A DNA stretch of 64,000 nt from Mangrovibacterium lignilyticum (GTDB lineage Bacteria; Bacteroidota; Bacteroidia; Bacteroidales; Prolixibacteraceae): positions 1,071,464-1,135,463 of the forward strand of contig NZ_WKLH01000001.1 of NCBI RefSeq assembly GCF_010882175.1, given 5' to 3'. Under the pieces are notes generated by a model. The model was not told the DNA's origin. It did no database searches and saw only the letters and a list, made by a program, of their open reading frames with translations. Every line of letters starts with the position of its first letter. Positions within the stretch are counted from its first letter, which is position 1. Of this stretch, positions 35,894-52,194 are shown piece after piece. The position numbers and the translations under genes were made by a program.

Positions 35894-35906
35894 ATGACCA
35901 AACATC

Positions 35907-36134
35907 ATGATTCAAAATATTATTGTTTTAGTTATTCTTGCGGCAGTTCTCATCAAAGTCGGATACAGCACTTACAAATCGTTGATCACAAAAGAAAAAG
36001 GGCTCTGCGGTAGTTGTGTCAGTTGCGATTTTAAACGAGAGCTAAAAAAGCGAGGAAAACTAAAGCCTTACAGTCCAAACAAGCTGGTCTCGTTCCGTAA
36101 GGAAGAAATTCGCTTTGCTCCAAGGCAACAATAA
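35907..36134 (+). CDS. FeoB-associated Cys-rich membrane protein
   Basis: A 75-residue protein with one N-terminal membrane helix (IIVLVILAAVLIKVGY) followed by the cysteine motif GLCGSCVSCDF and a basic tail. This matches the small FeoB-associated Cys-rich family that takes the place of FeoC in many bacteria. It starts 13 bp after feoAB and ends before a strong terminator, so it is the last gene of the iron operon. The cysteines may bind iron; this is inference from the family. Confidence 0.9.
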   Translation: MIQNIIVLVILAAVLIKVGYSTYKSLITKEKGLCGSCVSCDFKRELKKRGKLKPYSPNKLVSFRKEEIRFAPRQQ

Positions 36135-36210
36135 ATTTAACGAGCTAAATACTCCGGATTTTCGATAATTTCCACATAAAATTCGGTACAAATTTAGAGG
36201 GGAATACTTC

Positions 36211-36239
36211 AAGGCTGTCAGATATGACAGCCTTTTTTT
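36211..36239 (+). terminator. Rho-independent terminator of the iron operon
   Basis: Perfect eight-pair stem GGCTGTCA/TGACAGCC, loop GATA, then TTTTTTT. Confidence 0.92.
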
Positions 36240-36364
36240 GTGCCAAAAACCACGTAAAAAGTCAAGGTAAATCAAACCAACGGAACAACCACACTAATCA
36301 CTCAAATACAACCCATTAGAGATGAATAGACAATCCAACAACCACCTAAAAAAACACCAATTAT

Positions 36365-36398
36365 ACATTCGTGCAAGTTATTTAGACATTGGTTAAGG
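36365..36398 (+). promoter_or_regulatory. Candidate operator, copy 1: direct repeat with 21-bp spacing upstream of GH127
   Basis: ACATTCGTGCAAG at 36365 and ACATTGGTTAAGG at 36386 are 21 bp apart. Over 25 bases from 36366 the sequence matches copy 2 (48247) and copy 3 (51864) at about 21 positions each, with the same AGTT-TTTA core between the ACATT blocks. It is 67 bp upstream of the GH127 start, and a TAAGTTAG at 36415 could be the -7 box. Binding by the cluster's hybrid regulator is inference. Confidence 0.55.
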
Positions 36399-36464
36399 TA
36401 CTCCATCGAAAGAATAAGTTAGTTCACCTTCGGGATTTTAACCGAAAATTTTGACAGAAAAGGT

Positions 36465-38879
36465 ATGGGAATGAGAATATCAAAATTCAAAACACGTTTA
36501 CGCAAAAACCGGGCGATCTACTTTCAGATCCTGCCGTGTATTATTGCACTATCGTGTTCGCTGCAAACTAAAGAAACCACGATTAAGACCGGGGGCCCGG
36601 AAGTGGTCGATTTTAAAGTTTTGCCATTCAGTCTGGCTGATGTAAAACTATCGGATGGCCCTTACCTGCATGCGACAGATCTTGGAATTAACACCTTATT
36701 GGAATACGAACCCGACCGGTTCCTTGCCAAATTCAGAAAAGAAGCCGGACTGGAGCCAAAAGCTGAAAACTACGGTGGATGGGAAGGTGAATCGCTGGCC
36801 GGACACAGTTTAGGCCATTACATGACAGCCATAAGCTTCATGTATCTCACCACCGGCAATGACGAATTTTTAACTCGCGCGAATTACATTGTCGATGAAC
36901 TGGCCACCTGTCAGGATGCCAATGGAACCGGTTATATTGGTGCATTCGAAAATGGCGAAAAGATATTGACGGAAGAAGTGGCAAAAGGTCAAATCAAAGC
37001 TCAGGGTTTTAACCTGAACGGTTTGTGGTCGCCTTTCTACACGATCCATAAAATTATGGATGGACTGTACCATGTGTACAAATATTGTGGTAACGCAAAA
37101 GCACTTGAGGTCGAAAAAAAGTTTGGAGACTGGGTTGGAACTGTTGTCAATGGCCTAACCGATGAACAGCGTCAGGAAATGTTGCATTGTGAATTTGGCG
37201 GCATGAACGAAGCGCTTGCAGATCTCTACGCTGAAACAGGAGATGAAAAGTACATGCAGTTGTCTTTCAAATTTAAGCACGACGCAATCATCGATCCAAT
37301 TGTTGCCGGGGATGATATTCTTGCAGGGAAACATGCCAATACACAAATCCCCAAGTTTGTAGGCTTGGCTCGTCGCTACGAATTAACAGGCGACAGCGCC
37401 GATTACGAAGGAGCCACCAACTTCTGGAACATGATGGTTCATCATCATGCTTATGTAGCGGGAGACTTCGACAACTACGAATACCTCGGGGAACCGAATC
37501 AACTAAACGATCAGTTAAGTAACAGCACTGCTGAAACCTGCTGTGTTTACAACATGCTAAAATTGTCGCGCCACCTGTTTGAGTGGAACGCTTCGGCCGA
37601 AGTGATGGACTACTACGAACGCGCACTGATCAACCACATCCTTTCGTCGCAACACCCCGAGACAGGACATGTCATCTACAACCTGTCGCTCGACATGGGA
37701 GGATTTAAGGAATACCAAAATCCGTACGACTTTACCTGTTGTGTCGGATCGGGCATGGAAAATCATTCCAAATATGGACGAAACATTTACTATCATTCCG
37801 AAAACTCACTGTACGTTGGGCAGTTTATCGGTTCCGAATTGAGCTGGAAAGACAAGGGAGTTGAAATCATCCAAACCACCGAATATCCGGAAGAAGAAGG
37901 CACGACATTGGAAATCAAAACCGATTCGGATAGAACCGTTTCTTTCAACCTGAAAGTGCGGTATCCCTCGTGGGCAAAAAAAGGCATATCTGTCAAAATA
38001 AACGGAAAAAACAAACAAATTGAAGGCCAGCCGGGAAGCTTCGTTAGCCTTGGTGACAAATGGAATGATAGTGACATAATTGAGATCAACATTCCGTTCA
38101 GCTTGTACCAGGAAACGATGCCGGACAACAAAAACAGAGTCGCAATTTTCAACGGGCCCGTTTTGCTGGCTGGCTACCTGGGGCCACTTGACGACCCGAA
38201 AGCGACCGATCCCATGTATGTTCCTGTACTGATGACCAAGGACACTGTTCCTTCGAATTGGCTGACTCCGATTGAAGAACTGAAAAACACATTCAAAACC
38301 TCCGGAGTAGGCTATCCCCGTCAGGTAATGTTGAAACCTTTTTACCGCACTCAGGACTGCCACTACACGGTTTACTGGGATAGCTATTCCGCAGAAGAGT
38401 GGGAACACTACCAGACAGAATACCAAGCAGAACAAGCCCGAAAAAAAGCCTTGGAAGCCAAAACCATCGACATTTTCCGCCTGGGTGAAATGCAGCCGGA
38501 GCGCGACCACAACTTCAAAGAAGAGAAATCATGGGTTGGCGAATACAAATCGAAAAAATACCGGGAAGTTGATCGTGGCGGGCAAGCCTCGTTTGACATG
38601 AAAATTGACGGAAATGGGCCAGATGCGTTGGTGTTTGAATATTGGGGCGGATTTGCGGGTTCGCATACCTTTGACATTGTTGTTGAAGGAACGAAAATCG
38701 CAACCGAAAACATTACCAACAAGGCTCCGGGCAAGTATATCGACGTAACTTACTTGATCCCTGAAAAACTAACAAAAGGGAAAAGTCGTATTAAAGTTGA
38801 ACTGCTTCCGCATGACGGACACCGTGCTGGTCCTTTATTTACGGCCCGAACAATCAAAAACGTTAGATCGGAGAACTAG
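36465..38879 (+). CDS. GH127 beta-L-arabinofuranosidase, lipoprotein
   Basis: An 804-residue exported enzyme that should remove beta-L-arabinofuranose residues, as in hydroxyproline-linked arabinans of plant cell-wall glycoproteins. A basic N-terminus and hydrophobic segment end in IIALSC (lipobox). The (alpha/alpha)6 catalytic domain runs to about residue 560 with the metal site visible: Glu357-x-Cys359 in ETCCVYNMLK and Cys425-Cys426 in FTCCVGSGMENH, equivalent to Glu338, Cys340, Cys417 and Cys418 of Bifidobacterium HypBA1, where Cys417 is the nucleophile. A beta domain follows, and an extra C-terminal domain at about 680-804 (DALVFEYWGGFAGSHTFDIV) is probably carbohydrate-binding. ATG at 36471 is an alternative start. 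Confidence 0.92.
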   Translation: MGMRISKFKTRLRKNRAIYFQILPCIIALSCSLQTKETTIKTGGPEVVDFKVLPFSLADVKLSDGPYLHATDLGINTLLEYEPDRFLAKFRKEAGLEPKAENYGGWEGESLAGHSLGHYMTAISFMYLTTGNDEFLTRANYIVDELATCQDANGTGYIGAFENGEKILTEEVAKGQIKAQGFNLNGLWSPFYTIHKIMDGLYHVYKYCGNAKALEVEKKFGDWVGTVVNGLTDEQRQEMLHCEFGGMNEALADLYAETGDEKYMQLSFKFKHDAIIDPIVAGDDILAGKHANTQIPKFVGLARRYELTGDSADYEGATNFWNMMVHHHAYVAGDFDNYEYLGEPNQLNDQLSNSTAETCCVYNMLKLSRHLFEWNASAEVMDYYERALINHILSSQHPETGHVIYNLSLDMGGFKEYQNPYDFTCCVGSGMENHSKYGRNIYYHSENSLYVGQFIGSELSWKDKGVEIIQTTEYPEEEGTTLEIKTDSDRTVSFNLKVRYPSWAKKGISVKINGKNKQIEGQPGSFVSLGDKWNDSDIIEINIPFSLYQETMPDNKNRVAIFNGPVLLAGYLGPLDDPKATDPMYVPVLMTKDTVPSNWLTPIEELKNTFKTSGVGYPRQVMLKPFYRTQDCHYTVYWDSYSAEEWEHYQTEYQAEQARKKALEAKTIDIFRLGEMQPERDHNFKEEKSWVGEYKSKKYREVDRGGQASFDMKIDGNGPDALVFEYWGGFAGSHTFDIVVEGTKIATENITNKAPGKYIDVTYLIPEKLTKGKSRIKVELLPHDGHRAGPLFTARTIKNVRSEN

Positions 38880-38911
38880 TTTTAATAAAAGCATCAATTC
38901 TTTTTCTCTGT

Positions 38912-38940
38912 AACCATGGTGCCCCCACACCATGGTTTTT
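38912..38940 (+). terminator. Terminator-like hairpin between GH127 and GH43 genes
   Basis: Perfect ten-pair stem AACCATGGTG/CACCATGGTT, loop CCCCCA, then TTTTT. It lies 33 bp after the GH127 stop and may reduce transcription into the rest of the cluster. Confidence 0.85.
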
Positions 38941-38996
38941 ACACCTTAAAACAGATTCCTGAAATACATCTAAAACCGACCAACGGAATGACAAAC

Positions 38997-41141
38997 ATGA
39001 AAATTCAGCTTACAACAATAACGGCTTTCTTTGCCCTTCTTCTATCGATCAGCGGATATGCACAATATTGCCCCATGAAACCGGCAAACGGCAATCCAGT
39101 TCTTCCCGGATATTTTGCAGATCCGACAATTAAAAAGTTTGGCGACACCTATTACATTTATGCCACGACCGATGGCATAAAGCTGGCATCGGGCGAGCCA
39201 CAAGTATGGATCAGCGAAGATTTGGGAAACTGGTACGACCAGGAAATGGATATTGAATTGCCGGAAGGGCTAACTAATTGCTGGGCACCCGATGTACTTC
39301 AGGGGGAGGATGGTAAATATTATTACTACATGGGAAACTGCCAGTTTGGGTGTAACATCTACGGTTACGTCTCCGACACGCCAACCGGTCCGTGGAAACC
39401 TTTAAACAACGGCGAAGCAGTCATTCCGGTTGGTACCGGCAAAGAATATTTGCCGGCGCTAGATGCCCAGTTTCTCGTTGACGACGACGGCTCATTATAT
39501 AACTATTTCGGAACCTGGTGTACTTCGTTTAAAGGAATGGGGTGGGTGAAAATCAACTCAGACGATATGCACACCATCGAGAAGGAAGGTTTTATCCCAA
39601 TAGAGCAAATCCCTCAGGCTTTCGAAGCAGCCTACCCGATCAAAAAAGACAGCATTTATTTTCTGATGTACTCATCGGGCGATTGCCGTCTAGGTACGTA
39701 TGCAGTTCATTATTCCTGGTCGCTATCACCCGAAGGTCCCTGGACTTATGGCGAAAACTGCCCCATTCTGGAAACAACATCCGATGGCTATATCGACAGC
39801 CCCGGACACCACTCAGTACTGGAGAAAGATGGCGAATATTACATTGTTTATCATCGTCACGACAACCCGCACAGCAGTGGAGGCGAGTTCCGCCAGGTAT
39901 GTATCGACAAAATGGAATTCTCCGATCCCTACACCATTGAAAAAGTAACGCCGACACACGAAGGTGTCTGCTTCGAAAGCAGCATGCCCGGCAATTTGGC
40001 TTTCGGCGCAAAAGCAAGCGCCACATCAAGCTATCGTTTGGTAGCCGAAGCCAATCAGTATACCCGCAAAGATGTTGATCATCTTTACGCTCCGGAATTG
40101 GCAACCGACGACAACAACGGAACCATGTGGAAAGCTGCCAGTGCAACCTTGCCGCAATCACTGGTTATCGACCTTGGAAAACAGCAAGACATTAAGCGAA
40201 TATTTACGCAATTCGAATATCCGACATTCTACTATCAGTATAAAATTGAAGTGTCTGCCGACAGCACAAATTGGGAACTTTTCGCCGATCAAACCGCGAA
40301 TAAAACAAGCGGATCGCCAATGATCGATGACAACAACACCTTGGCCCGCTATGTAAAAATTACGGTAACCGGAACAGAAAAAGCAGGCATGTTCCCGGCC
40401 ATCTGGAATGTAAAGGTATTCGACGAAATCTTCGAAACACCTGCAACAAAGAATCACCCCATAGTCGGAAAAGACGGGAACACCAAAAGCCAAGGGCTGC
40501 TGGTTAACTTCGACGCTTCCAAAGTAGGAAAAGGTGAAATCAGCCACGTGAAAAACACAGGGCTGCTGGGTGGTGAATTCAAATTAGCCGGGACGGCATC
40601 AATCGAAAAGGTTGACGGTGTAAAATCGGTTCAACTTGATGGTCAAAGTTTCTTTGAGCTATCCGAAAAAGCTCCGCAAAGCCTCGACTGGAACTCACCA
40701 TTTACTGCTTCAGCCTGGGTTTACATCCCAGAACATCAGGATGGAGCTTGCGTCATTGCATGGAACTCGCGCGAAAATATGCTGCAGGCGTCTTACGCTG
40801 CCATGATGGTCGGAAAAGGCAACTACGGAGCGATTGCACATGGCGACGGTTCCGTTGACCTGAGTTTTAAAAATGTTCCCTCGGAGAATGAATGGCATCA
40901 CTTGGCAGTCACTTTCGACGGTATGAAAGAAAGCATTTATGTTGATGGGAAATTGGATCGCGAAATGCCGCTGATGCTTTTCGTGGAAAAAAGTAAAATT
41001 CTGATCGGCGCTTCCGGCATCGAACCGGAGAATTTGAAAGGATCAATTGCCAACGTTCGCTTATACGATCAACCAATGACTGCGACACAAATCGCGGAAC
41101 TTTACCTGGAAACGAAACCGAAAGGACTTTCGAACAAATAG
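38997..41141 (+). CDS. GH43 family glycosidase with CBM32-like and LamG-like domains
   Basis: A 714-residue secreted enzyme. Signal peptide MKIQLTTITAFFALLLSISG; GH43 five-bladed propeller at about residues 25-330 with base Asp in GYFADPTIKKF, modulator Asp in ALDAQFLVDDDG and acid Glu in QAFEAAYPIK; an F5/8-type (CBM32-like) discoidin domain at about 345-490 (LVIDLGKQQDIKRIFTQFEY, ARYVKITVTG); and a LamG/concanavalin domain at about 510-705 (FTASAWVYIPEHQDGA, WHHLAVTFDGMKESIYVDG). Typical activities are arabinofuranosidase or xylosidase; with GH127 next door an arabinan-type substrate is likely. The frame extends to 38916, but that passes through the terminator hairpin, so 38997 is chosen. 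Confidence 0.92.
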   Translation: MKIQLTTITAFFALLLSISGYAQYCPMKPANGNPVLPGYFADPTIKKFGDTYYIYATTDGIKLASGEPQVWISEDLGNWYDQEMDIELPEGLTNCWAPDVLQGEDGKYYYYMGNCQFGCNIYGYVSDTPTGPWKPLNNGEAVIPVGTGKEYLPALDAQFLVDDDGSLYNYFGTWCTSFKGMGWVKINSDDMHTIEKEGFIPIEQIPQAFEAAYPIKKDSIYFLMYSSGDCRLGTYAVHYSWSLSPEGPWTYGENCPILETTSDGYIDSPGHHSVLEKDGEYYIVYHRHDNPHSSGGEFRQVCIDKMEFSDPYTIEKVTPTHEGVCFESSMPGNLAFGAKASATSSYRLVAEANQYTRKDVDHLYAPELATDDNNGTMWKAASATLPQSLVIDLGKQQDIKRIFTQFEYPTFYYQYKIEVSADSTNWELFADQTANKTSGSPMIDDNNTLARYVKITVTGTEKAGMFPAIWNVKVFDEIFETPATKNHPIVGKDGNTKSQGLLVNFDASKVGKGEISHVKNTGLLGGEFKLAGTASIEKVDGVKSVQLDGQSFFELSEKAPQSLDWNSPFTASAWVYIPEHQDGACVIAWNSRENMLQASYAAMMVGKGNYGAIAHGDGSVDLSFKNVPSENEWHHLAVTFDGMKESIYVDGKLDREMPLMLFVEKSKILIGASGIEPENLKGSIANVRLYDQPMTATQIAELYLETKPKGLSNK

Positions 41142-41168
41142 TTTACAAACAAAAAAAGAACGGTCGCT

Positions 41169-43901
41169 ATGATAAAAAAGATGTTTAACACCTCTTTCCA
41201 ACGAACAATGCGATACACATTTTTCGCATTGCTTGCCTTCAATTTTCTTGCTTGTACAAGCGGTCAACCCCAAGAAACGAAGCGACCAAAAGTGCTGAAA
41301 CTGGAAGAAGGTTTTTCATCCTACCACACGCCTACGTTAGGACTGGAGTTAGTGAATTCATCGCAAACAGTGGCAAAACTGGAGGCGACCGATTACGATA
41401 ATTTTGATTTAGCGCCTTATGAATGGCTAGAGAAAAGGGATGCTGATGGCTTTTACCACTTAGGCGATATCAATTTGTCTGTTAGAAATCCGGATAGCCT
41501 GAGTTGGACAAAATATTCATCGGCCGCCAAGCGTCAACCGGTTAAAGCAATTACCTCAGAAGACAGCTCCGTTTTGGCTGCTGCTGATTTGAAAAATACT
41601 TTTCCGGACGATTTTCCACTGCAGCTCACTCGTTTTTGGCAGAAAAAGGATGACCATTTAGTTTTAAAATTTCAACTAAAGAATCCACTAGAGCATGCCG
41701 TAGAAATCGGGGCGCTTGGCATCCCTTTAATTTTCGACAACAACTTTGATCACAAACACCTGGATGAGGCTCATGCTGAAAATGTCTTTTTCGATCCGTA
41801 TATTGGCGAAGATGCAGGTTACCTTCAGGTTGCCCGCCTAAACGGAGAGGGGCCAGTCATGCTCGTTTTACCTTACGGCCATTCCCCCTTCGAAGCCTAC
41901 CGCCCCTTGCTGGACGATCCGACAAACAGAAGCTTCACCTTTGAAGGCTTTCACGAATGGATGATCTACAGCAAAGCTTATGCTGACAACGAATGGAAAG
42001 GTTCGGAACAATGGAATGAGCCAAGGTCAAAAGTACTGGCTGCAGGTGAGACAATTGAATTTGGACTGGAATTCGTTTTAGCTGACTCCATCAAGGCCAT
42101 CGAAAAAACGTTGATCAGGCACGATCGACCAGTGGTGGTAGGTGTTCCCGGTTATGTTTTACCGGAGGATGTCAATGGCAACCTCTTCATCAAAAGTAAC
42201 AAGTCGATTGCTGCAGTCCAGGTGGAACCAAAAGGTGCACTGGAGGTCAGCTACGACTCCCAAACCAAAGGCAATTGGAGCAAGTACCGGGTGAAAGGTG
42301 CAAAATGGGGACGCGCCCGACTGACGCTCGTTTACGACGATAAATCCATTCAAACGATCAATTATAAAATCATCAAACCCGAAGCGGAAGTTGTTGCCGA
42401 CAACGGGCACTTCCTGACAACCAAGCAATGGTATGTCAACGATGATGATTTATTTGGCAGAAGTCCTTCCGTAATCACTTACGATTACGAAGCAAAAAAA
42501 CAACTGACCGAAGACCGGCGTGCCTGGGTAGCAGGCTTGAGCGATGAAGGCGGTGCCGGCGCCTGGCTGAATGCGATCATGAAACAACTGGTAGAACCAA
42601 ACAAAGAAGAAATTGCTAAACTCGAAGATTTTGTCAATCTAACGATCGTTGGCGGCATTCAATCTGATGAAGGTCCGGGAAAATACGGTGTGCGAAAAAG
42701 CATGTTCTATTACGAACCGGACTCGATGCCTTCCGGCACCTACAGCGATACAGTTGACTACAGCAGTTGGTCGGCATGGCCAAAAAAAGAAGCCATATCG
42801 GTTGGACGTTCCTATAATTATCCCCATGTTACCGCTGCCTATTGGGTGATGTATCGGCTGGCTCGCAACCACGTTGGACTGACCACGCAACAGGACTGGA
42901 GCTGGTATCTTGAACAATCGTTCCACACCGCAATGGCAATGGTAAACCTGGCCCCGTACTACGCACAATTTGGACAAATGGAGGGCTCTGTTTTTCTATT
43001 TTTACTGAAGGACCTTCAAGCCGAAGGGTTCAGCGACATGGCTGCAGAACTGGAAGAAGCCATGAAAACTCGTGCTACCCATTGGGCATCGTTGAACTAT
43101 CCGTTTGGAAGCGAAATGCCTTGGGACTCAACCGGACAAGAAGAAGTGTACATGTGGTCCCATTACTTCGGATTCTCTGAAAAATCGTTGGTGACAATCA
43201 ATGCCATTTTAGCGTACATGCCTACAATACCACATTGGGCCTACAACGGGAACGCCCGCCGCTATTGGGATTTTCTCTACGGAGGAAAACTATCCCGCAT
43301 CGAACGGATGATTCACCATTACGGTTCGCCGCTCAACGCTATCCCTGTTTTAACCGAATACCGCGATCACCCGGAAGACCTGTACCTGCTACGGGTTGGG
43401 TATGGCGGATTAATGGGTGCTCTTTCAAACATCACCGAAGATGGTTTTGCTCCCTGCGCCTCTCACTCCTTCCCTTCCACCCTCAAAAATGATGGTATTT
43501 CGGGAGACTACGGCTCCGGCTATTACGGTTATGCGGTGAACAGTGCAAGCTACATCACTCACGACGACGAACTCGGCTGGCTGGCTTTTGGCGGTAATCT
43601 TTCGGAAAAAGGACCATGGATTGAAACCGCTATTACTACTGCGTCAAAATCGAAAATTTATATTTCCCCCGCCAAGGCATGGATCACCCTGACTGCGGGA
43701 GCGATTGAGAAAGTGAGCTACAACAAAACAACCGGAGAGATAAATTTGACATTGTTGCCAGCTGACACCTACACCCCAAACGCCTACCTTTTAGTTGAAA
43801 AAAATCATCAGAAAGTGGCGATCAAAGGTGACTATCGAAAAAATGAACGCGGTGATTTCATCATTCCATTGAAGAAATCGTCCGTAACAATCAGCATATA
43901 A
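41169..43901 (+). CDS. DUF5695-like large secreted protein, candidate six-hairpin glycosidase
   Basis: A 910-residue exported protein, lipobox-like FNFLACTSG near residue 28. The N-terminal half (about 40-430) reads as beta-rich (LELVNSSQTVAKLEATDYDN, FQLKNPLEHAVEIGALGIPL); the C-terminal half (about 470-830) is helical and resembles an (alpha/alpha)-barrel glycosidase (SVGRSYNYPHVTAAYWVMYR, WDSTGQEEVYMWSHYFGF, HWAYNGNARRYWDFLYGG). It resembles the Bacteroidota DUF5695 family, an assignment made from memory. Acidic residues in DSTGQEEVY are possible catalytic residues. It starts 27 bp after the GH43 gene, so it shares that operon. A new glycoside hydrolase or lyase activity is plausible. Confidence 0.75.
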   Translation: MIKKMFNTSFQRTMRYTFFALLAFNFLACTSGQPQETKRPKVLKLEEGFSSYHTPTLGLELVNSSQTVAKLEATDYDNFDLAPYEWLEKRDADGFYHLGDINLSVRNPDSLSWTKYSSAAKRQPVKAITSEDSSVLAAADLKNTFPDDFPLQLTRFWQKKDDHLVLKFQLKNPLEHAVEIGALGIPLIFDNNFDHKHLDEAHAENVFFDPYIGEDAGYLQVARLNGEGPVMLVLPYGHSPFEAYRPLLDDPTNRSFTFEGFHEWMIYSKAYADNEWKGSEQWNEPRSKVLAAGETIEFGLEFVLADSIKAIEKTLIRHDRPVVVGVPGYVLPEDVNGNLFIKSNKSIAAVQVEPKGALEVSYDSQTKGNWSKYRVKGAKWGRARLTLVYDDKSIQTINYKIIKPEAEVVADNGHFLTTKQWYVNDDDLFGRSPSVITYDYEAKKQLTEDRRAWVAGLSDEGGAGAWLNAIMKQLVEPNKEEIAKLEDFVNLTIVGGIQSDEGPGKYGVRKSMFYYEPDSMPSGTYSDTVDYSSWSAWPKKEAISVGRSYNYPHVTAAYWVMYRLARNHVGLTTQQDWSWYLEQSFHTAMAMVNLAPYYAQFGQMEGSVFLFLLKDLQAEGFSDMAAELEEAMKTRATHWASLNYPFGSEMPWDSTGQEEVYMWSHYFGFSEKSLVTINAILAYMPTIPHWAYNGNARRYWDFLYGGKLSRIERMIHHYGSPLNAIPVLTEYRDHPEDLYLLRVGYGGLMGALSNITEDGFAPCASHSFPSTLKNDGISGDYGSGYYGYAVNSASYITHDDELGWLAFGGNLSEKGPWIETAITTASKSKIYISPAKAWITLTAGAIEKVSYNKTTGEINLTLLPADTYTPNAYLLVEKNHQKVAIKGDYRKNERGDFIIPLKKSSVTISI

Positions 43902-43935
43902 TCTTAGTTGAAGTGCTATAAATATAATGGAAGCG

Positions 43936-43972
43936 TGACCTCGGTTCATCTAAAACAGATCAACTGAGGTCA
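43936..43972 (+). terminator. Long imperfect hairpin after the DUF5695-like gene
   Basis: TGACCTCGGTT pairs with AACTGAGGTCA (one G-U) and continues with ATCT/AGAT, about 15 pairs around an AAAAC loop. There is no T-run, so it may act as an mRNA 3' end stabiliser or a Rho-type boundary. Confidence 0.6.
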
Positions 43973-44132
43973 TTCAATTAAAAAGAACACTTTAATCAAA
44001 AAAAACATTTTTTGGATTCAGTGACAATATGGGAGCAAAAAATATTTAAATGCTATTTTTACCGAAATCAGGAAGATGCTTTCCCAGACAAATAAGAACA
44101 ACGAAGATCGACAACAATTGATGGATGCTTAA

Positions 44133-47100
44133 ATGAAAAAAAACGGCGCAAAATATCATTTATTCTTTTTAAATACGCTTGTGTGTTTAATCGCATTGCT
44201 CTGCTTTCATCAAACCGTTTTTGCTCAAGATCAGGAACCTATTCAATTCCGTCACTACACCCCGGAAGATGGCTTACCATCGTCGTACGTTAAAAGCATT
44301 ACACAAGATACCGACGGATTTATTTGGGCTGCCACGCGTACAGCAGTTGTTCGTTTCGACGGTCAGAACTTTCAGGAATTCCCAACCTACAATGATTCTC
44401 TGAAGCCCCTTCAGATTTTCTGCAACAAGCTGTTCATGACCAAAGATTCAATTCCGATTGCCAGAACAAACAACGAATCTTATTACTATTTCAATCGGGA
44501 TCTTGAAAGCTTCTACCCGTATCCGTTATTGACGGCATTAGGCCCAACCAGCTCCATTGTCGCATCCAAAGGAGGCTTCTGGGTTTGTCAAAACGACCAG
44601 ATTTTCTTTCTAAATGAAGCTACCGGGCAGCGGGAAGGATTAAGACAAAAACTCAAACTTTTCCAGATTCCAGAAGGGAGTTTATTCACATCTATCCTTG
44701 AACGAGGCAACCGTCTGGTTTTTGCGACCACTAAGGGTAAAATATATTCCTACCAAAACAACGAACTCCGGGAATTCGATCTTCCCAATGAACTGAACAA
44801 GGACCAATTCGACCTTCGTTTTATTGATTCCCACGATAATCTTTGGATTCACTCCCAGGATTATGGATTAGCTAATTTAAATCTCACGAATAACTATTAC
44901 AGTTTTTATGCTGAAGCAAGAAAAGACAGCTACCACTTACCACACAATTTAGTACACTGTTTCACGGAAGACCACGAAGGAAGGGTCTGGGTCGGAACAG
45001 AATCAGGACTGGCCATTTATGATCCTGAAACCGACAATCTGGCACTTCATCATTACAAACTAGCAGAACCTAACGGGTTGAATACAGATCCGATTTATGA
45101 TGCTTTTTGTGATCAGCAAGGCAACATTTGGTTGGGGACTTATTTCGGCGGAATTAATTTCTGGAATGGCGAAAAACAGTTTTTCAGAACCTGGACTTCC
45201 GGATTTGGGAAATGGCACCTAAGCGGCAATGTGGTTAGTTGCTTAACGGAAGACGTAGCAGGCAATTTATGGATCGGCCTCGAAGACAAAGGCCTCAACA
45301 AATTGAATCGCCAAAACGGGAAAATGACTCACTATTCGTCGGAAGATGGTCCAAATAGTTTGTCCTATAACAACCTTCACGATTTACTCTTCGTGAACGA
45401 CCATGAATTGTGGATTGCGACCTATACAGGCGGAATCAATGTTCTGAATACCAAAACAAACCGTTTTGAGTATTACAACCGAAAAAATACCAACAACGCT
45501 CTTTCAGACGTCATTTACCAATTTGAAAAAGTTGATGACCGCGTTTACATTGCGACCTCAGAGGGAATAGTCGTATTTGAACAGAAGGACAAAAAGTTCC
45601 ATAAGCTCAAACCTGAGATCACGAGCAGTTTCCAGTTTGAAAGCATCGCAAAAAACGGACAATTCCTTTGGTTTTCATCTGCCCAACAAGTATTCCGATA
45701 CGATATCAGTAAAGACTCCATCGCTCCATTTAGATTAAACGATGAACTTCAAATTGTTAATTTTGTAAAAACCGACTCGAAAGGAAGAGTGTGGTTTGGC
45801 AGCTGTTACAATGGACTATTCTATTTGGATGGAACAACAGGTGAAATCACCCAAATTAACGAGGATAATGGTTTCCCGGCACAATGGATTTTCAGTTTGG
45901 AAGAAGGAAAAAATGGCTGGTATTGGGCGAGCACCAATAAAGGACTGGTGAAATTTCAACCTGAAACAGGCGCCAGTACGCTTTACGACAGTAATTCAGG
46001 CATCCCATTCAACCAGTTTAACTACCGCGCTTCTTTCACCGATAGTAAAGGAAACACCTATTTTGGTGGCAACAACGGAATGATCTCTTTCAACGAAGAG
46101 TCGAAACCGAGCCAGATTCATAAATTACCGGTTGTTTTTACCGGGTTCCAATTATTCAACAAACATGTTCATCCGGGCGACATCAAATGCATGGACAGGT
46201 CAATCAACGAACTGGACGAGCTGGTGTTAAAATACAACCAAAACGTATTCACACTGGAGTACACTGCTTTTAGTTACGCGACCGGCGGTCGTTGTCAATA
46301 TTCGTATTTTCTGGACGGCTTTGAAACGAAGTGGAATAATGTGGGGAACCGGAACTTTGCGACTTATACCAACCTTTCGCCTGGCACATACACCTTCCGC
46401 GTTAAAGCAATCATAAACGACAACCTAAACGAACCACAGGAGCGACAACTCACAATCACCATTTTGCCACCATTTTGGCTGACCAACTGGGCTTTCGGCA
46501 TTTATGGCATCCTGGCTATTCTGATTTTCATCCTTGTATTCCGGGTCGGTAAAAACCTGGAAAAAACAAAAGCGATGGCCGAACTGCAACGTCGCGAGAA
46601 AGTACATGCTGACGAAATACACAAGGTGAAACTCGAGTTTTTCACTAATATCTCACACGAACTAAAAACACCGCTCACCCTCATTCTAGGACCGCTGAAC
46701 AAGCTGATGGCAGAAGAAAAGCTTAGCCCTGCATTTCGGAAGCGTCTAATCGGAATTGAGCGAAACGCAAACCGACTATTCCTGTTGATTAACCAACTGC
46801 TGGAATTCCGGAAAATAGAAAATGGTAAGGAAAAGCTCAAAGTCTCGCCTTGTGATGTTAGCTTGATGATGGATGATATATCCAACTCATTCACTAATTT
46901 GTCGGAAACGAGAGATATCGATTTTCAGCTTGAGTTTCCGGCCCCCGGTAAAATGGCTTGGTTCGACGTCAACAAAGTCGATAAAATCATTTTTAACCTT
47001 TTATCGAATGCCTTTAAGTTTACACCTGAGGGTGGTAAAATTAGTTTTACTGTTGAGTTGAAAAAACGAATTCCCCGAACGCCGGATGAACTCATCGACA

Positions 47101-48200
47101 TGGTTATCACTGTTTCCGACTCCGGAAAAGGAATCAAACAGGAAATGCTGAATAAAGTATTCGACCGTTTTTTCCAGATCGAAGAGGAACAAGTAGACAA
47201 TACCGGATCGGGTATAGGACTAGCCTTTGTAAAAAGCTTGGTGTTACTGCATAAAGGGCAGATTACTGTTGACAGTATCGTAAATAAAGGAACAAGCTTC
47301 AAAGTTCAGTTACCGGTCAGCAAGGAGGACTTCAACTCTCAGGAAATTTCCATCGAGCCGGTTCAGTATCATCAGGCGATGCGTGCTCCGGTTATTCAGG
47401 ACGTCTCCGGCGGCAAAAGCGAAACCATCAACCCGGATGCACTTTCCTCAAAACCAACCATCCTCATCGTGGAGGATAATATCGACCTGATCAACTTTAT
47501 GAAAGAGTCGCTCGAAATGAGCTACCAGGTCGTGATGGCCCTAAATGGTGTTAAGGCGTTGGAAAAACTGGAGAAAGTTACCCCCGAATTAATTATCAGC
47601 GATGTGATGATGCCAGAAATGGATGGCATTGAATTGACTAACCGCCTAAAGTCGGACCTGAAATTATCGCACATACCAATCATTCTGCTGACATCGAAAA
47701 GTGGCATGGAAAGCAAACTTCAGGGACTGCGTTCCGGAGCTGACTATTACATTGAAAAACCATTCTACCCAAATATTCTGGAGCAAAACATCGAAAATAT
47801 TCTAAATACACGGCGTCGTTTGATTGAGCGTTTTAAGACTGATGATACAATTCAAATTGAAGAAGTAGCTCACTCTGAATCAGACAAAATTTTCATTGAA
47901 AAACTGACTGTAATCATCAAAGAGAATATTAGCAATCCGGATATGGATGTGAGCTTCCTCATCAAAGAAATGGGCGTAAGCCGCTCCCTGCTTCATATCA
48001 AATTAAAAGGATTAGTCGGCTGCTCCAGTACTGAATTCATTCGGGCGATCCGCTTGAAAGAAGCAGTCAAATTAATTTCAAGCGGGAAGTGCAACATCTC
48101 CGAAGCCGCCTACGAAACAGGCTTTTCGAGCCCAACTTATTTTACGCGCCGGTTCCGCGAATTCTATGGAAAATCACCCCGGGACTATTTCAACCACTAG
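44133..48200 (+). CDS. Classical hybrid two-component regulator (periplasmic propeller, kinase, receiver, AraC)
   Basis: A 1355-residue glycan-cluster regulator. Signal peptide (about 1-32), periplasmic sensor with propeller repeats to about residue 690 (LTEDVAGNLWIGLEDKGLN, TEDHEGRVWVGTESGLAIY), Y_Y_Y domain to about 780, one membrane helix (IYGILAILIFILVFRVG), HisKA with His near 839 in NISHELKTPLT, HATPase (LLSNAFKF, GSGIGLAFVKSL), receiver with Asp near 1153 in IISDVMMPEMDGI, and AraC domain at about 1275-1355. It lies between the GH127-GH43 block and the DUF6055-GH97 block and is their obvious regulator. Known relatives sense oligosaccharides in the periplasm. Confidence 0.95.
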   Translation: MKKNGAKYHLFFLNTLVCLIALLCFHQTVFAQDQEPIQFRHYTPEDGLPSSYVKSITQDTDGFIWAATRTAVVRFDGQNFQEFPTYNDSLKPLQIFCNKLFMTKDSIPIARTNNESYYYFNRDLESFYPYPLLTALGPTSSIVASKGGFWVCQNDQIFFLNEATGQREGLRQKLKLFQIPEGSLFTSILERGNRLVFATTKGKIYSYQNNELREFDLPNELNKDQFDLRFIDSHDNLWIHSQDYGLANLNLTNNYYSFYAEARKDSYHLPHNLVHCFTEDHEGRVWVGTESGLAIYDPETDNLALHHYKLAEPNGLNTDPIYDAFCDQQGNIWLGTYFGGINFWNGEKQFFRTWTSGFGKWHLSGNVVSCLTEDVAGNLWIGLEDKGLNKLNRQNGKMTHYSSEDGPNSLSYNNLHDLLFVNDHELWIATYTGGINVLNTKTNRFEYYNRKNTNNALSDVIYQFEKVDDRVYIATSEGIVVFEQKDKKFHKLKPEITSSFQFESIAKNGQFLWFSSAQQVFRYDISKDSIAPFRLNDELQIVNFVKTDSKGRVWFGSCYNGLFYLDGTTGEITQINEDNGFPAQWIFSLEEGKNGWYWASTNKGLVKFQPETGASTLYDSNSGIPFNQFNYRASFTDSKGNTYFGGNNGMISFNEESKPSQIHKLPVVFTGFQLFNKHVHPGDIKCMDRSINELDELVLKYNQNVFTLEYTAFSYATGGRCQYSYFLDGFETKWNNVGNRNFATYTNLSPGTYTFRVKAIINDNLNEPQERQLTITILPPFWLTNWAFGIYGILAILIFILVFRVGKNLEKTKAMAELQRREKVHADEIHKVKLEFFTNISHELKTPLTLILGPLNKLMAEEKLSPAFRKRLIGIERNANRLFLLINQLLEFRKIENGKEKLKVSPCDVSLMMDDISNSFTNLSETRDIDFQLEFPAPGKMAWFDVNKVDKIIFNLLSNAFKFTPEGGKISFTVELKKRIPRTPDELIDMVITVSDSGKGIKQEMLNKVFDRFFQIEEEQVDNTGSGIGLAFVKSLVLLHKGQITVDSIVNKGTSFKVQLPVSKEDFNSQEISIEPVQYHQAMRAPVIQDVSGGKSETINPDALSSKPTILIVEDNIDLINFMKESLEMSYQVVMALNGVKALEKLEKVTPELIISDVMMPEMDGIELTNRLKSDLKLSHIPIILLTSKSGMESKLQGLRSGADYYIEKPFYPNILEQNIENILNTRRRLIERFKTDDTIQIEEVAHSESDKIFIEKLTVIIKENISNPDMDVSFLIKEMGVSRSLLHIKLKGLVGCSSTEFIRAIRLKEAVKLISSGKCNISEAAYETGFSSPTYFTRRFREFYGKSPRDYFNH

Positions 48201-48243
48201 GAACTACAACCGCTCTGATCTGTTTTACCCCGTAGCTGAATCT

Positions 48244-48280
48244 ACACATTGCTGCAAGTTTTTTACACATTGCTGCCAAG
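48244..48280 (+). promoter_or_regulatory. Candidate operator, copy 2: ACACATTGCTGC direct repeat with 21-bp spacing
   Basis: ACACATTGCTGCAAG at 48244 and ACACATTGCTGCCAAG at 48265 are identical over the first 12 bases and 21 bp apart. Over 25 bases it matches copy 1 (36366) at about 21 positions. It lies 83 bp upstream of the DUF6055-like gene. A further CTACACATCC within GATCTGC/GCAGATC arms occurs at 48313-48337. Confidence 0.6.
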
Positions 48281-48362
48281 CCAACTCATGCCTTTTCCGC
48301 TACTTTATCTTGAGATCTGCTACACATCCGGCAGATCATGAAAATCATTCATCCGATTAAAA

Positions 48363-49745
48363 ATGGCAAAAACGAAATTAGCTTTTTACACAGCGTTCAT
48401 CCTTCTGATCCAGGTGGCTTGTCAACTTTCAAAAAAGACAAACAGCACCAATCCGGCTACAGTCGAAAATAAAGAAACCTATCTTCCGGTTGACGCCTGG
48501 CAGGTTGCAAAAGACAATGACTACAACGACAGCACCAGCCGGTTCAACTTTTACCGGATGAAAGAAACCGAAAACCTGGTCGCGTTTTGGGAATCCGGAT
48601 TTGGCAAAGCCCCTTCCAACACAAGCGATCCTAAATTCCGGTTCGATTTGGATGATTTAATTGCAGAAAGTGAAAAGATGTTTCAATTTTTTCGCGACAG
48701 CCTTAAATTTGTTGAACAAGGCCATTCGCTCACCGACAAATACCGGATGAACTTTTACGTTTTCTACAACGAAGACGGAACCGTTTACGGAGGCGGTGCC
48801 GACGACTCGATCGGAGTCATGTGGCTTTCGCCGGGACGCATTCAGGATAAACCTTACGGAGCCATGGCGCACGAGATGGGGCATGCGTTTCAGTATATGG
48901 TTTCAGCCGATGGCCACTGGGGGTTCACTTCGTCGCCGGAAGGCAGCAAAGGCCAAAGTATTTTCGAAATGACTTCACAATATATGCTCTGGCATTATTA
49001 CCCGGACTGGATGCGCTTTGAGAACTATCATTTAAAAATTTTCATGCATAATACGCACAAGGCATTTTTGCACGAAGACAACATGTATTGCTCTCCCTAC
49101 GTGCTCGAATACTGGTCCGAAAAACATGGAATTGACTTTATTGCCAAGCTCTGGCGCAAAGCGAAAGAAGGAGAAGATGCGATCATGACCTACAAACGGA
49201 TCACCGGAATTGACCAGTCAGCATTTAACGACGAGATGCTGGATGCTTATCTCCATTTCATGACTTGGGATATGAATCGAATCCGAAAAGTTGCCAGCAA
49301 TTTTGCCAACCAACACACGACAAAAATGGAAATTGACGGTGACGGTTGGTACAAAATTTCTGCCGACAAATGTCCCCAGAATTATGGGTACAACGGCATT
49401 CAATTGGAGGTTCCGGCAGGTGGGACCGAAATAAAACTTGATTTCAAAGGAATTGCCGGTGCAGAGGGATATCATGCAGTCAACACGGACAGAGCAGGTT
49501 GGAGATACGGTTTTGTTGCTGAAAAAAGCAACGGTGAGCGCATCTATAGCGACACCTCCTCTCAGAACAACGGTCAGGCAAAATTCACGGTTCCTGAGAA
49601 TACGCAATGGCTTTGGTTGGTTGTCGTTGGCGCTCCTACTCAGCATTGGGAACACATCTTCGATGGAGATCCGGACAATGATGAACAATGGCCTTATGAG
49701 ATCAAGCTTGATGGTACAAAACCGATTCAGTCCGTTGTGAACTAA
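48363..49745 (+). CDS. DUF6055-like secreted protein with HExxH motif, candidate metallopeptidase
   Basis: A 460-residue exported protein (hydrophobic start with LLIQVACQ lipobox). It contains AMAHEMGHAFQYM, an HExxH zinc-protease motif, around residue 175, preceded by a gluzincin-like region (GGGADDSIGVMWLSPGRI) and followed by helical parts with conserved Trp/Tyr (YCSPYVLEYWSEKHG). The last 150 residues look like a beta domain (GGTEIKLDFKGIAG). Resemblance to the DUF6055 family is from memory. In a glycan cluster it could trim the protein part of a glycoprotein or proteoglycan, in line with GH127. Activity is unproven. Confidence 0.75.
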   Translation: MAKTKLAFYTAFILLIQVACQLSKKTNSTNPATVENKETYLPVDAWQVAKDNDYNDSTSRFNFYRMKETENLVAFWESGFGKAPSNTSDPKFRFDLDDLIAESEKMFQFFRDSLKFVEQGHSLTDKYRMNFYVFYNEDGTVYGGGADDSIGVMWLSPGRIQDKPYGAMAHEMGHAFQYMVSADGHWGFTSSPEGSKGQSIFEMTSQYMLWHYYPDWMRFENYHLKIFMHNTHKAFLHEDNMYCSPYVLEYWSEKHGIDFIAKLWRKAKEGEDAIMTYKRITGIDQSAFNDEMLDAYLHFMTWDMNRIRKVASNFANQHTTKMEIDGDGWYKISADKCPQNYGYNGIQLEVPAGGTEIKLDFKGIAGAEGYHAVNTDRAGWRYGFVAEKSNGERIYSDTSSQNNGQAKFTVPENTQWLWLVVVGAPTQHWEHIFDGDPDNDEQWPYEIKLDGTKPIQSVVN

Positions 49746-49781
49746 ATGTAGTCGACGACGGCACCATAATTCTTCTTTTTT

Positions 49782-49789
49782 TAACTTTG
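49782..49789 (+). promoter_or_regulatory. -7 promoter box TAACTTTG upstream of GH97
   Basis: Perfect TAnnTTTG match 31-38 bp before the GH97 start, within the 74-bp gap. No -33 TTG at normal spacing, so the gene may be both read from upstream and started here. Confidence 0.4.
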
Positions 49790-49819
49790 GGTTCCAATAA
49801 ACCTTAACAACAACATACA

Positions 49820-51772
49820 ATGATTAAACGATTATTATTCACTCTCGTGGTCGCACTGACATTCTACACGGGAGTACTGGGGCAGGTAGCCTCTGTTTCG
49901 TCCCCCAACAACACCATTAAAATCAACGTCAAACTAACCGACCGGATTTACTACAATTTGGAGGTAGACGAGAAAGGAACCATGTGGTACTCTCCTATTT
50001 CGATGAGCACAAACCAGGGAGAACTGGGACAAAATCCGGTGCTTTTGAATCAATCTTCAAACTCTGTTGATCAATCCATCAAAACTGTTTGGGGAACCCG
50101 CAGCGAAGTCAAAGATCAGTACAACGAGCTGACACTCGATTTCAAAAATGGGTACTCCCTAATCTTTCGTGCTTATGATGACGGAGTTGCCTATCGATTC
50201 AAAACTAGTAAAAAGGGCGAGCTGCTGGTTTATAACGAAGAAGTTGAATATCGCTTTTGGAAAAACCATAACATGCTGAGCAAGGTCGCCGATTCCTTTT
50301 CCACTTCCTTTGAGCAATTATACACGCGTGAGCGATTGCGGGACGTAAGCCCTCAGAATCTCATCAACCTGCCAACGGTTATTATGGCCGACAGCATTTA
50401 CCTGACTGTACTTGAATCGGATTTGTTCGATTATCCGGGCATGTACCTGTCAAAATCGATCAACCACGCACACCGATCATACCTCGACGGAAAGTTTGCA
50501 ACCTACCCAACAAAATGGCAACAAAACAACTTCCATCTTGAAGTGACAGACCGTGCTGACTACATCGCAAAAACAGAAGGAAGCCGCTTATTTCCCTGGC
50601 GGGTTATCGCTGTTTCGCGCACCGATTTGGAAATGGCTGACTCGGATCTGGTTTATAAACTGGCCCGTCCCTCAAAAATTAATGCCGATTGGGTAAAACC
50701 GGGTAAAGTAGCCTGGGATTGGTGGAATGCCATGAACCTGGAAGGAGTTGATTTTGAAACCGGAGTCAACAACAAAACCTATGAATACTACATCGACTTT
50801 GCCGCTAAAAACAACATTGAGTATGTAATTATGGATGAAGGCTGGTCCGATCAGTTCGATGTGCTGCTACCAACCCCAATGGTTGACATGGAGCACCTGA
50901 CTCAGTATGCCAAAGAGAAAGGAGTTAAACTGATTTTATGGGCGGTTTGGCACACCATCGACCGTCAGTACAAAGAAGCATTCGAGTTGTTTGAAAAGTG
51001 GGGCATCGCTGGTGTGAAAGTTGATTTCATTGACCGTGACGATCAATTGGCAATCGAATTTTACGAACGACTAATTCAGGAAGCAGCCAAGCACCATTTG
51101 TTGGTCGACTTTCATGGTTGCTCCAAGCCAACCGGCTTACACCGCACCTACCCCAACCTGATCAACTACGAAGGAGTGCACGGCAACGAATACAATAAGT
51201 TTAACGACGAGCAAACTCCGTCGCACAACGTCGATCTGCCGTTCACTCGCATGATGACCGGCCCAATGGATTACACGCCTGGCGCAATGACCAATTTTGT
51301 ACAGAACGATTTTCACCTCAGCTACTATAATCCGGGGAGTAATGGTACCCGCTGTCACCAACTGGGTATGTTTGTAGTCTACTTTGCTCCGCTGCAAATG
51401 CTATGCGATGCGCCAACGGCCTACGAAAAGTATCCGGACATTCTGGAATTCTTGAGCGCTGTTCCAACAACCTGGGACGAAACAAAAGTACTGGATGGTA
51501 AGCTGGGCGAATTCATTGTAATTGCCAGAAAAAAGGACAACATCTGGTATATCGGAGGAATGAATGATTGGACAGAACGGGATGTCACATTAGATCTTTC
51601 GTCTTTACTCGGCACCGGAAATTATGAAGCGACAATGCTCGTTGATGGTGTTAACGCCAATCGAAATGCGGAAGATTACAAAGCAGTCAAAAAAGATGTT
51701 TCGGCAAACAAACCGCTTCATCTAACGATGAAAAAAGGTGGTGGCTTTGTTGTCCGGATTCAAACAAAATAA
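49820..51772 (+). CDS. GH97 family glycosidase (alpha-glucosidase/alpha-galactosidase)
   Basis: A 650-residue secreted enzyme: signal peptide (to about residue 20, VLGQVASVSSPNN), N-terminal beta-sandwich to about 270, TIM barrel at about 275-540 and C-terminal beta domain. GH97 hallmarks seen: WDWWNAMNLEGVDFETGVN, IMDEGWSDQFDVL, GVKVDFIDRDDQ, FHGCSKPTGLHRTYPNLINY and GVHGNEYN. Asp402 sits where retaining members such as BtGal97b place the nucleophile, whereas inverting SusB-type alpha-glucosidases lack an Asp there; this suggests a retaining alpha-galactosidase, with moderate confidence. It is the last gene of the cluster. Confidence 0.92.
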   Translation: MIKRLLFTLVVALTFYTGVLGQVASVSSPNNTIKINVKLTDRIYYNLEVDEKGTMWYSPISMSTNQGELGQNPVLLNQSSNSVDQSIKTVWGTRSEVKDQYNELTLDFKNGYSLIFRAYDDGVAYRFKTSKKGELLVYNEEVEYRFWKNHNMLSKVADSFSTSFEQLYTRERLRDVSPQNLINLPTVIMADSIYLTVLESDLFDYPGMYLSKSINHAHRSYLDGKFATYPTKWQQNNFHLEVTDRADYIAKTEGSRLFPWRVIAVSRTDLEMADSDLVYKLARPSKINADWVKPGKVAWDWWNAMNLEGVDFETGVNNKTYEYYIDFAAKNNIEYVIMDEGWSDQFDVLLPTPMVDMEHLTQYAKEKGVKLILWAVWHTIDRQYKEAFELFEKWGIAGVKVDFIDRDDQLAIEFYERLIQEAAKHHLLVDFHGCSKPTGLHRTYPNLINYEGVHGNEYNKFNDEQTPSHNVDLPFTRMMTGPMDYTPGAMTNFVQNDFHLSYYNPGSNGTRCHQLGMFVVYFAPLQMLCDAPTAYEKYPDILEFLSAVPTTWDETKVLDGKLGEFIVIARKKDNIWYIGGMNDWTERDVTLDLSSLLGTGNYEATMLVDGVNANRNAEDYKAVKKDVSANKPLHLTMKKGGGFVVRIQTK

Positions 51773-51862
51773 AGATTAACCATCATTGGCAAAATAAGAG
51801 TTAAACGTATTCACAAAAAGATATAACACTGAAGTAAAAGCCATTAACCCAGATCACTTTAA

Positions 51863-51896
51863 ACATCCGTGACAGTTTTTTAGACATTAATACTAC
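51863..51896 (+). promoter_or_regulatory. Candidate operator, copy 3, downstream of the glycan cluster with no gene after it
   Basis: ACATCCGTGACAG at 51863 and ACATTAATACTAC at 51884, 21 bp apart, with the AGTT-TTTA core between; matches copy 1 at about 21 of 25 bases. The gap 51773-52194 holds no gene: after this element come ACACCATGGTTTTTA at 51924 (15 bases identical to the GH127-GH43 hairpin) and a terminator at 52025. Confidence 0.45.
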
Positions 51897-52024
51897 TTGA
51901 CTGAGAAGATAAACGTGATATTTACACCATGGTTTTTAGATCAAAACATTAGTGAAATTTGACAAGAGCACACCCCAAAGGCTGCTTTAGTCATCGTAAT
52001 ACTTTTATAACTTTTGCCCCGAAA

Positions 52025-52055
52025 AACACCGTCCCTCTGGCACGGTGTTTTTTTT
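52025..52055 (+). terminator. Rho-independent terminator 250 bp past GH97
   Basis: Stem AACACCGT/ACGGTGTT, loop of about nine bases, then eight T. It ends any plus-strand transcript coming from GH97 or from the orphan operator region. Confidence 0.9.
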
Positions 52056-52145
52056 GTTCGTTTGAATCAACATAACCAGAGAGAATTCAGGTTCCGAGTT
52101 TCAAACAATCAGAACGATCCACTTTCCACCACTATTCCTTAGTGC

Positions 52146-52188
52146 AATAATGAAGAGCCTCCGTGTTTATCGAAGGCTCTTCATTATT
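52146..52188 (-). terminator. Perfect 15-bp hairpin after S9 peptidase gene
   Basis: AATAATGAAGAGCCT and AGGCTCTTCATTATT, 13-base loop, 7 bp beyond the stop of the minus-strand gene. The AT-rich base of the stem can supply the T-tract in either direction. Confidence 0.8.
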
Positions 52189-52194
52189 GATCGC

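What the first reader, a model, noticed from the sequence alone, without database searches (positions are those of the whole stretch)
36365..48280. Candidate operator of the glycan-cluster regulator: 25-bp element with ACATT direct repeats 21 bp apart
Seen: ACATT blocks spaced exactly 21 bp with an AGTT-TTTA core occur at 36365 (67 bp before GH127) and 48244 (83 bp before the DUF6055-like gene), about 21 of 25 bases identical. A 21-bp spacing is two helical turns, fitting a tandem AraC-domain dimer on one DNA face. Both mark the first genes of the two transcription blocks flanking the hybrid regulator at 44133. That the regulator binds here is inference.
Basis: partly seen in the sequence, partly recalled or inferred. 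Interest (0 to 1): 0.72.

Follow-up and report, generated by a model that had tools for sequence, protein, structure and literature searches.

The report
Operator sites of a sugar-sensing regulator
A repeated DNA address tag marks the genes that one sugar-sensing switch protein probably turns on, and the same tag appears in front of a second, distant gene cluster in the same bacterium, which suggests one switch controlling both halves of a plant-glycan digestion system.

Summary
Confirmed and extended. The two 26-bp elements (36365, 48246) are real, 22/26 identical, with ACATT repeats exactly 21 bp apart. A model trained only on other genera puts all three among the top six hits in the 5.63-Mb genome (E 7e-6, 6e-4, 0.017). 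Two of the other three are new: they precede a SusC/SusD operon and a GH127 gene on another contig. Eight relatives carry a 74-76% identical SusC right after this hybrid two-component regulator (HTCS), with a site between. Sites occur in 21 of 21 genomes with an HTCS ortholog (in one, on a separate small contig) and precede SusC, the HTCS, GH127 or DUF6055 at 42 of 49 places. Around 80 other HTCS genes none reaches 24 bits. A -7 promoter box lies at a preferred distance. So it is very probably the HTCS operator, in cis here and in trans on a separated SusC/D half. Direct repeats about 21 bp apart are the published HTCS architecture (Ravcheev 2013): a new member of a known kind. Binding is inferred. 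Boldest open reading: the third site drives a short noncoding RNA.

The parts
36365..36390 (+). operator S1 (direct repeat, 21 bp), 74 bp before the GH127 gene; 44-nt matrix window 36357-36400
   Evidence: held-out score 35.2; genome-wide E 7e-6 with a model built without this genus; equivalent sites precede GH127 in same-genus relatives G105 and G106
36415..36422 (+). possible -7 promoter box TAAGTTAG (5 of 6 to TAnnTTTG), offset 50 from S1 start
   Evidence: 3 bases short of the 53-55 peak, so weak
36465..38879 (+). GH127-type beta-L-arabinofuranosidase
   Evidence: Pfam E 2e-115; best solved relatives 5opj and 8k7x
38916..41141 (+). GH43 with Laminin_G_3 and F5/8 domains
41169..43901 (+). 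DUF5695 protein
44133..48200 (+). HTCS regulator: Reg_prop propeller, Y_Y_Y, HisKA, HATPase, receiver, AraC-type HTH; phospho-His, receiver Asp and SHIP motif present
48246..48271 (+). operator S2, 45 bp after the HTCS stop and 91 bp before DUF6055
   Evidence: held-out score 20.7; genome-wide E 0.017
48301..48308 (+). possible -7 box TACTTTAT (4 of 6), offset 55 from S2
48363..49745 (+). DUF6055 protein with an HExxH motif (putative metalloprotease)
49820..51772 (+). GH97, close to the retaining alpha-galactosidase model NF053844 (738 bits, cut-off 800)
51863..51888 (+). operator S3 (new), after the GH97 stop; longest + strand ORF between it and the convergent gene is 46 aa
   Evidence: held-out score 23.3; genome-wide E 6.3e-4
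51917..51924 (+). possible -7 box GATATTTA (4 of 6), offset 54 from S3
52022..52052 (+). terminator-like hairpin with T tract; end of the GH97 transcript and/or of a short S3-driven RNA

Best explanation
The elements are operators of the hybrid two-component regulator at 44133-48200. Each has two half-sites (consensus near ACATTTGTGATAGTT in relatives, ACATTsSTGCAAGTT here) 21 bp apart, so two AraC-type DNA-binding domains would sit on one face of the helix. The Bacteroidota -7 box tends to follow 53-55 bp from the start of the site, and the downstream half-site lies where a -33 element would be expected. The simplest mechanism is activation: ligand sensed by the periplasmic propeller, phosphorylation of the receiver, release of the DNA-binding domain, binding as a tandem dimer, recruitment of RNA polymerase to promoters without a recognisable -33 element. 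The regulon here has two parts: the window cluster (GH127-GH43-DUF5695, then DUF6055-GH97, then S3) and, on another contig, a SusC-SusD-DUF4859-DUF6055-CotH operon and a GH127 operon with their own sites. Shown: sites, statistics, conservation, linkage to this regulator's orthologs, preferred distance to the -7 box. Inferred: binding, activation, operon limits, ligand.
For: Orthologs: the HTH search gives 24 matches of 151 bits or more in 21 of 140 family genomes, then a drop to 106 bits. Sites of 24 bits or more lie in 21 of 22 fetched segments, 21 of 21 genomes; the segment without one is G122's HTCS contig, which ends inside the HTCS gene, and G122's site is on another small contig. With each genus held out of training, 51 hits of 15 bits or more appear across the 21 genomes (at least one is an overlapping register shift); the window's three score 35.2, 23.3 and 20.7, the only ones at 15 or more in 32 kb. 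Control: 80 loci around other HTCSs, 1.51 Mb: 3 at 15 or more, none at 24 or more. All 8 pattern hits with at most 2 mismatches in 140 genomes fall in ortholog-bearing genomes. Next gene after the 49 sites: SusC-like 22, HTCS 13, GH127 6, DUF6055 1, other 5, none 2. Whole own genome: S1, C9 SusC site, C9 GH127 site, S3, one probable false hit, S2, then noise. The C9 SusC is 77% identical to the SusC next to the HTCS in G105 and 74-76% to those after a site next to the HTCS in seven further genomes. -7 box (5 of 6 at offset 52-55): 19 of 49 sites, shuffle mean 2.5, largest 8 of 1000. Architecture agrees with published HTCS motifs.
Against: No binding or expression data. The matrix was seeded with a pattern from the window sites and first scored on its own training data; only the held-out runs exclude the genus. 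The best control place (21.7 bits, full matrix) is above the held-out score of S2 (20.7), and S2 ranks below an unrelated hit genome-wide (0.017 against 0.008). The window's own -7 boxes are poorer than those of many relatives. No site lies upstream of the HTCS gene in the window, unlike several relatives. The reversed pattern gives as many 3-mismatch hits in the family as the real one.
Confidence: 0.9

Rival explanations
1. The sites are bound by another regulator (a different HTCS or a free AraC protein) whose targets overlap this cluster.
For: The genome holds 7 HTH matches at E<=1e-20, this one included; an HTCS 26% identical lies about 10 kb from the C9 SusC. HTCS motifs of related paralogs can resemble each other (Ravcheev 2013 passages).
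Against: Sites track this HTH ortholog clade: 21 of 21 genomes, against none of 24 bits or more in 80 loci around other HTCSs. Same-genus relative G104, without an ortholog, has no pattern match. In several relatives sites flank the HTCS gene on both sides, and 13 of 49 sites precede the HTCS gene.
Confidence: 0.07
2. Chance or shared-ancestry similarity with no regulatory role.
For: A bare ACATT repeat at this spacing is as frequent as chance; S2 is weak alone; family-wide 3-mismatch hits equal the reversed control.
Against: Genome-wide ranking with the genus held out, held-out scores, the genes that follow the sites and the -7 box position.
Confidence: 0.02
3. The regulator uses these sites mainly to repress rather than to activate.
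For: An HTCS (BT2391) is reported to repress its PUL genes (mBio 2024 passages). A half-site at the -33 position would also suit repression.
Against: BT2391 deviates from the S/CHIP consensus, whereas this protein has SHIP, the phosphorylation-gated class. The sites lie upstream of the -7 box, not over it.
Confidence: 0.08

Closest known systems
HTCS direct-repeat operators of Bacteroides (Ravcheev et al. 2013, PMC3878776; passages read)
   Same: Direct repeat, average distance 21 bp, upstream of PUL operons, proposed tandem dimer on one face; distant regulon members (BT4675, BT2680) were also reported there.
   Different: Another family (probably Prolixibacteraceae); no SusC/D among the genes of the regulator's own cluster; a site with no gene downstream (S3). 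The published logos are in figures I could not see, so the motifs were not compared base by base.
BT4124 and BT4663 binding to the bt4114 and bt4662 promoters (PMC11253607; passages read)
   Same: Same kind of regulator with a receiver and AraC-type HTH; promoters drive susCD genes.
   Different: Those were tested by gel shift; the sites here were not. Motif sequences were not compared.
Bacteroidota sigma-ABfr promoter, TAnnTTTG at -7 and TTTG near -33 (PMC7366714; passages read)
   Same: TTTG of a -7 box recurs: exact TTTG at offset 57 or 58 in 24 of 49 sites.
   Different: No site of 49 has TTTG at offsets 28-36, where a -33 element would be expected (the expected place is my reckoning from recalled spacing).
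PUL-associated small RNAs (DonS, FopS; passages of PMC7366714 and PMC11697453)
   Same: Short RNAs linked to glycan clusters.
   Different: DonS is antisense to a susC gene; the S3 candidate is on the sense strand at the end of the cluster behind an HTCS site. The pairing test was negative.

Membership tests
HTCS operator (Ravcheev type) | direct repeat with about 21 bp between units | tested here: met
HTCS operator (Ravcheev type) | upstream of operons of the locus that encodes the HTCS | tested here: met
   S1 and S2 precede GH127 and DUF6055; S3 has no coding gene
HTCS operator (Ravcheev type) | conserved upstream of genes linked to HTCS orthologs in related genomes | tested here: met
   21 of 21 ortholog-bearing genomes; next genes tallied
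HTCS operator (Ravcheev type) | rare elsewhere in the genome | tested here: met
   5 of the top 6 hits lie in the two halves of the regulon
HTCS operator (Ravcheev type) | bound by the HTCS DNA-binding domain | not testable with these tools
   needs gel shift, DAP-seq or footprinting
HTCS regulator | periplasmic propeller sensor, HisKA, HATPase, receiver and AraC HTH in one chain | tested here: met
   (periplasmic location inferred)
HTCS regulator | phospho-accepting His and Asp, S/CHIP motif in the receiver | tested here: met
   SHELKTP at 841, DVMMPEMDG at 1157, SHIP at 1179
SusC/D polysaccharide utilization locus | susC/susD pair in the regulator's locus | tested here: not met
   no SusC/D Pfam match among the genes 32187-59732 that were scanned; a pair with operators is on contig C9
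sigma-ABfr promoter | TAnnTTTG -7 box | tested here: inconclusive
   clear for the set (19 of 49); the window's boxes reach 5/6 at offset 50, 4/6 and 4/6
HTCS-controlled small RNA (S3) | transcript from S3 to the 52022-52052 terminator | not testable with these tools
   operator, possible -7 box and hairpin present; not conserved in the genus; pairing with cluster mRNAs not above shuffles

The most novel reading that the evidence does not exclude
One HTCS regulon that has been split across the genome and that includes a noncoding output: S3 (51863) would drive a transcript of about 125 nt ending at the 52022-52052 terminator, with no protein gene. A relative of another genus (G033) shows a similar layout at the end of its cluster: site, -7 box, about 150 nt, terminator, no ORF of 120 aa or more, then a convergent gene. 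If real, a glycan sensor directly switches on a small RNA at the end of its own locus.
Probability: 0.3. Interest if true: 0.6.

Novelty: new member of a known kind. Interest (0 to 1): 0.45.

Why it matters
It turns a two-site guess into a defined regulator-operator pair with a matrix that works across eight genera of what is probably the family Prolixibacteraceae. The preferred distance to the -7 box gives a concrete activation geometry to test. The enzyme set (GH127, GH43, alpha-galactosidase-like GH97, HExxH DUF6055) would suit arabinosylated plant glycoproteins such as extensins (inference from recalled chemistry).

Tried and rejected
Bare ACATT-N16-ACATT: not above chance. Search for the S3 downstream RNA in 140 genomes: three weak partial matches outside the own genome, none in the genus; conservation rejected. 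Duplex energies of the S3 RNA against nine translation starts: 33 to 181 of 200 shuffles did as well. My simple terminator script missed the S3 hairpin (loop limit); it is seen. Rfam on 35800-52400: one match at E 0.81, far under its cut-off. sigma-70 promoter scan: 28 against 26 expected, and the wrong promoter type for this phylum. Covariation of HTH and site: the core differs between the closer clade (GCAAG) and the rest, and five HTH columns (1261, 1267, 1293, 1295, 1328) do not overlap between 9 and 14 sequences, but this is confounded with phylogeny (G107's HTH fell under that script's threshold). Hit C9:393257 (E 0.008) precedes a gene that looks like 2-oxoglutarate dehydrogenase E1 (recalled from its N-terminus), with ACATT-like blocks about 24 bp apart by my reading; judged a probable false positive. 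Other SusC homologs at C8:1201758 and C9:740856 (46 and 44%): no site above 8.2 bits in the fetched stretches. Papers: none held all of Prolixibacteraceae, GH127 and polysaccharide utilization; DUF6055 occurs in one fungal degradome paper (listing only). The library is limited to open papers.

Full report
The observation. They agree at 22 of 26 bases. The ACATT blocks start exactly 21 bp apart in both; the second site is an exact 13-nt repeat, TACACATTGCTGC. The distances to the next ATG are 74 and 91 bp. A pattern written from these two finds, at up to 3 mismatches, one more place in the window, 51863-51888, with none in 100 shuffles, and nothing else in the 5.63-Mb genome; the reversed pattern finds none. 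The bare ACATT spacing alone is not unusual.

The surroundings. 36465-43901 holds GH127, GH43 and DUF5695 genes; 44133-48200 is a complete hybrid two-component regulator; 48363-51772 holds DUF6055 and GH97. The regulator has the phospho-acceptor His and Asp and the SHIP motif, which a 2024 mBio paper links to phosphorylation-gated DNA binding (passages read). No SusC or SusD match was found among the scanned genes from 32187 to 59732.

Orthologs. The DNA-binding domain finds 24 matches of 151 bits or more in 21 of 140 genomes of the family; the next match has 106 bits. One genome, G052, has a contig of the same length as Maribellus sp. CM-23 contig NZ_JADWYJ010000001.1 with an HTCS ending at the same coordinate, so the family is probably Prolixibacteraceae. 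I fetched stretches around the HTCS in all 21 genomes (the window's own from the window; G106 and G122 only as short contigs) and scanned them. A 44-nt matrix, started from the window pattern and iterated, gives 49 sites of 24 bits or more; five-fold Markov controls give none above 14. The gene after the site is SusC-like in 22 cases, the HTCS in 13, GH127 in 6, DUF6055 in 1, something else in 5, and none of 120 aa within 600 bp in 2.

Independence. With each genus left out of training, all 21 genomes carry at least one hit of 15 bits or more (51 hits, at least one an overlapping register shift), and the window's three score 35.2, 23.3 and 20.7, the only ones at 15 or more in 32 kb. Around 80 other HTCS genes in named genomes (1.51 Mb; 24-38% identical) three places reach 15 bits, the best 21.7, and none 24; so a site as weak as S2 is not decisive alone. 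In the 140-genome pattern scan all 8 hits with at most 2 mismatches fall in ortholog-bearing genomes; of the 20 hits with 3 mismatches 14 do not, and the reversed control gives 27 hits in total (tallies mine).

Whole-genome test. A sequence-only model of 42 sites from other genera was run on the window's own genome. Ranked: S1 (7.0e-6), C9:1287810 (3.9e-5), C9:1297826 (6.1e-4), S3 (6.3e-4), C9:393257 (0.008, probably false), S2 (0.017); the other nine listed are 0.06 or worse. E-values are rough.

The second locus. The SusC that follows the HTCS in same-genus relative G105 has a 77% identical ortholog in the window's genome on contig C9. It is followed by SusD, DUF4859, DUF6055 and CotH genes and then GH127 genes, in the order of G105. 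The C9 operators lie before SusC (33.5 bits) and before the first of those GH127 genes (22.0 bits). In G105 this is one contiguous run: GH127-GH43-HTCS-site-SusC-SusD and on. In seven genomes of another genus (G044, G057, G061, G065, G068, G070, G071) a site next to an HTCS ortholog likewise precedes a SusC 74-76% identical to the C9 one. In G113, site-SusC-SusD-GH127-GH43-DUF5695 and, after three more ORFs, the HTCS form one run (SusC 43% and SusD 32% to the C9 pair). From contig lengths the two halves in the window's genome are at least about 1.25 Mb apart. So the operators very probably join a separated regulon. HTCS regulons with distant members are already known (Ravcheev 2013 passages).

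Geometry. Across 49 sites a TAnnTTTG-like box with at least 5 of 6 bases lies at offset 52-55 in 19, against a shuffle mean of 2.5 and a maximum of 8 in 1000; windows not overlapping this peak reach at most about 8. Exact TTTG falls at offset 57 or 58 in 24 of 49 and at offsets 28-36 in none. The window's own boxes are weaker: 5/6 at offset 50 for S1, 4/6 at 55 for S2, 4/6 at 54 for S3. TAnnTTTG is the published -7 consensus (PMC7366714 passages). The second half-site would then lie where a -33 element is expected, consistent with an activator that replaces it (inference).

The third site. S3 lies behind the last gene of the cluster with a possible -7 box and, 133 nt after the site, a strong hairpin with a T tract; no long ORF follows on that strand before the convergent gene. 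G033 shows a similar layout. This may be a small RNA, a relic promoter, or an operator in the GH97 3' region. The sequence is not conserved in the genus, and pairing with cluster mRNAs is not above shuffles.

Verdict. The kind is known. I found no report of this instance in the listings; of six papers I read passages only.

Noticed in passing
G000:C9:1287814 and C9:1297831 (L180, L181): Two further operators of the same regulator before a SusC/D operon and a GH127 gene: the separated half of the locus.
   Followed up: yes
51925-52058: Candidate short noncoding transcript between S3 and the terminator.
   Followed up: partly
48363-49745 and L181:4265-6292: Both DUF6055 proteins carry HExxH; the window one shows distant similarity to the Svx/AvrXca model (71 bits, cut-off 625), so possibly a secreted metalloprotease.
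   Followed up: partly
36465-51772 and C9:1287977-1306029: Enzyme set (GH127 once in the window and three times on C9, GH43, alpha-galactosidase-like GH97, HExxH protein) would suit extensin-type arabinosylated glycoproteins; inference from recalled chemistry.
   Followed up: no
43936-43972: Inverted repeat TGACCTCGGTT / AACTGAGGTCA between DUF5695 and the HTCS gene, with no T tract after it (read from the sequence).
   Followed up: no
L069-L076, L078 (genus g6 relatives): In several of these genomes a site with a degenerate first half lies shortly upstream of the HTCS gene (61-63 bp in G037, G039, G065 and one copy in G068) with a strong -7 box: probable autoregulation, not seen in the window.
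   Followed up: partly
L129:6633: In a locus around another HTCS (Paludibacter MAG), ACAATTGTGCAATTT occurs twice, 21 bp apart: possibly the operator of a different HTCS.
   Followed up: no
63347-63421 and 63576-63650: Two tRNA-Phe genes (GAA) in tandem on the - strand.
   Followed up: no
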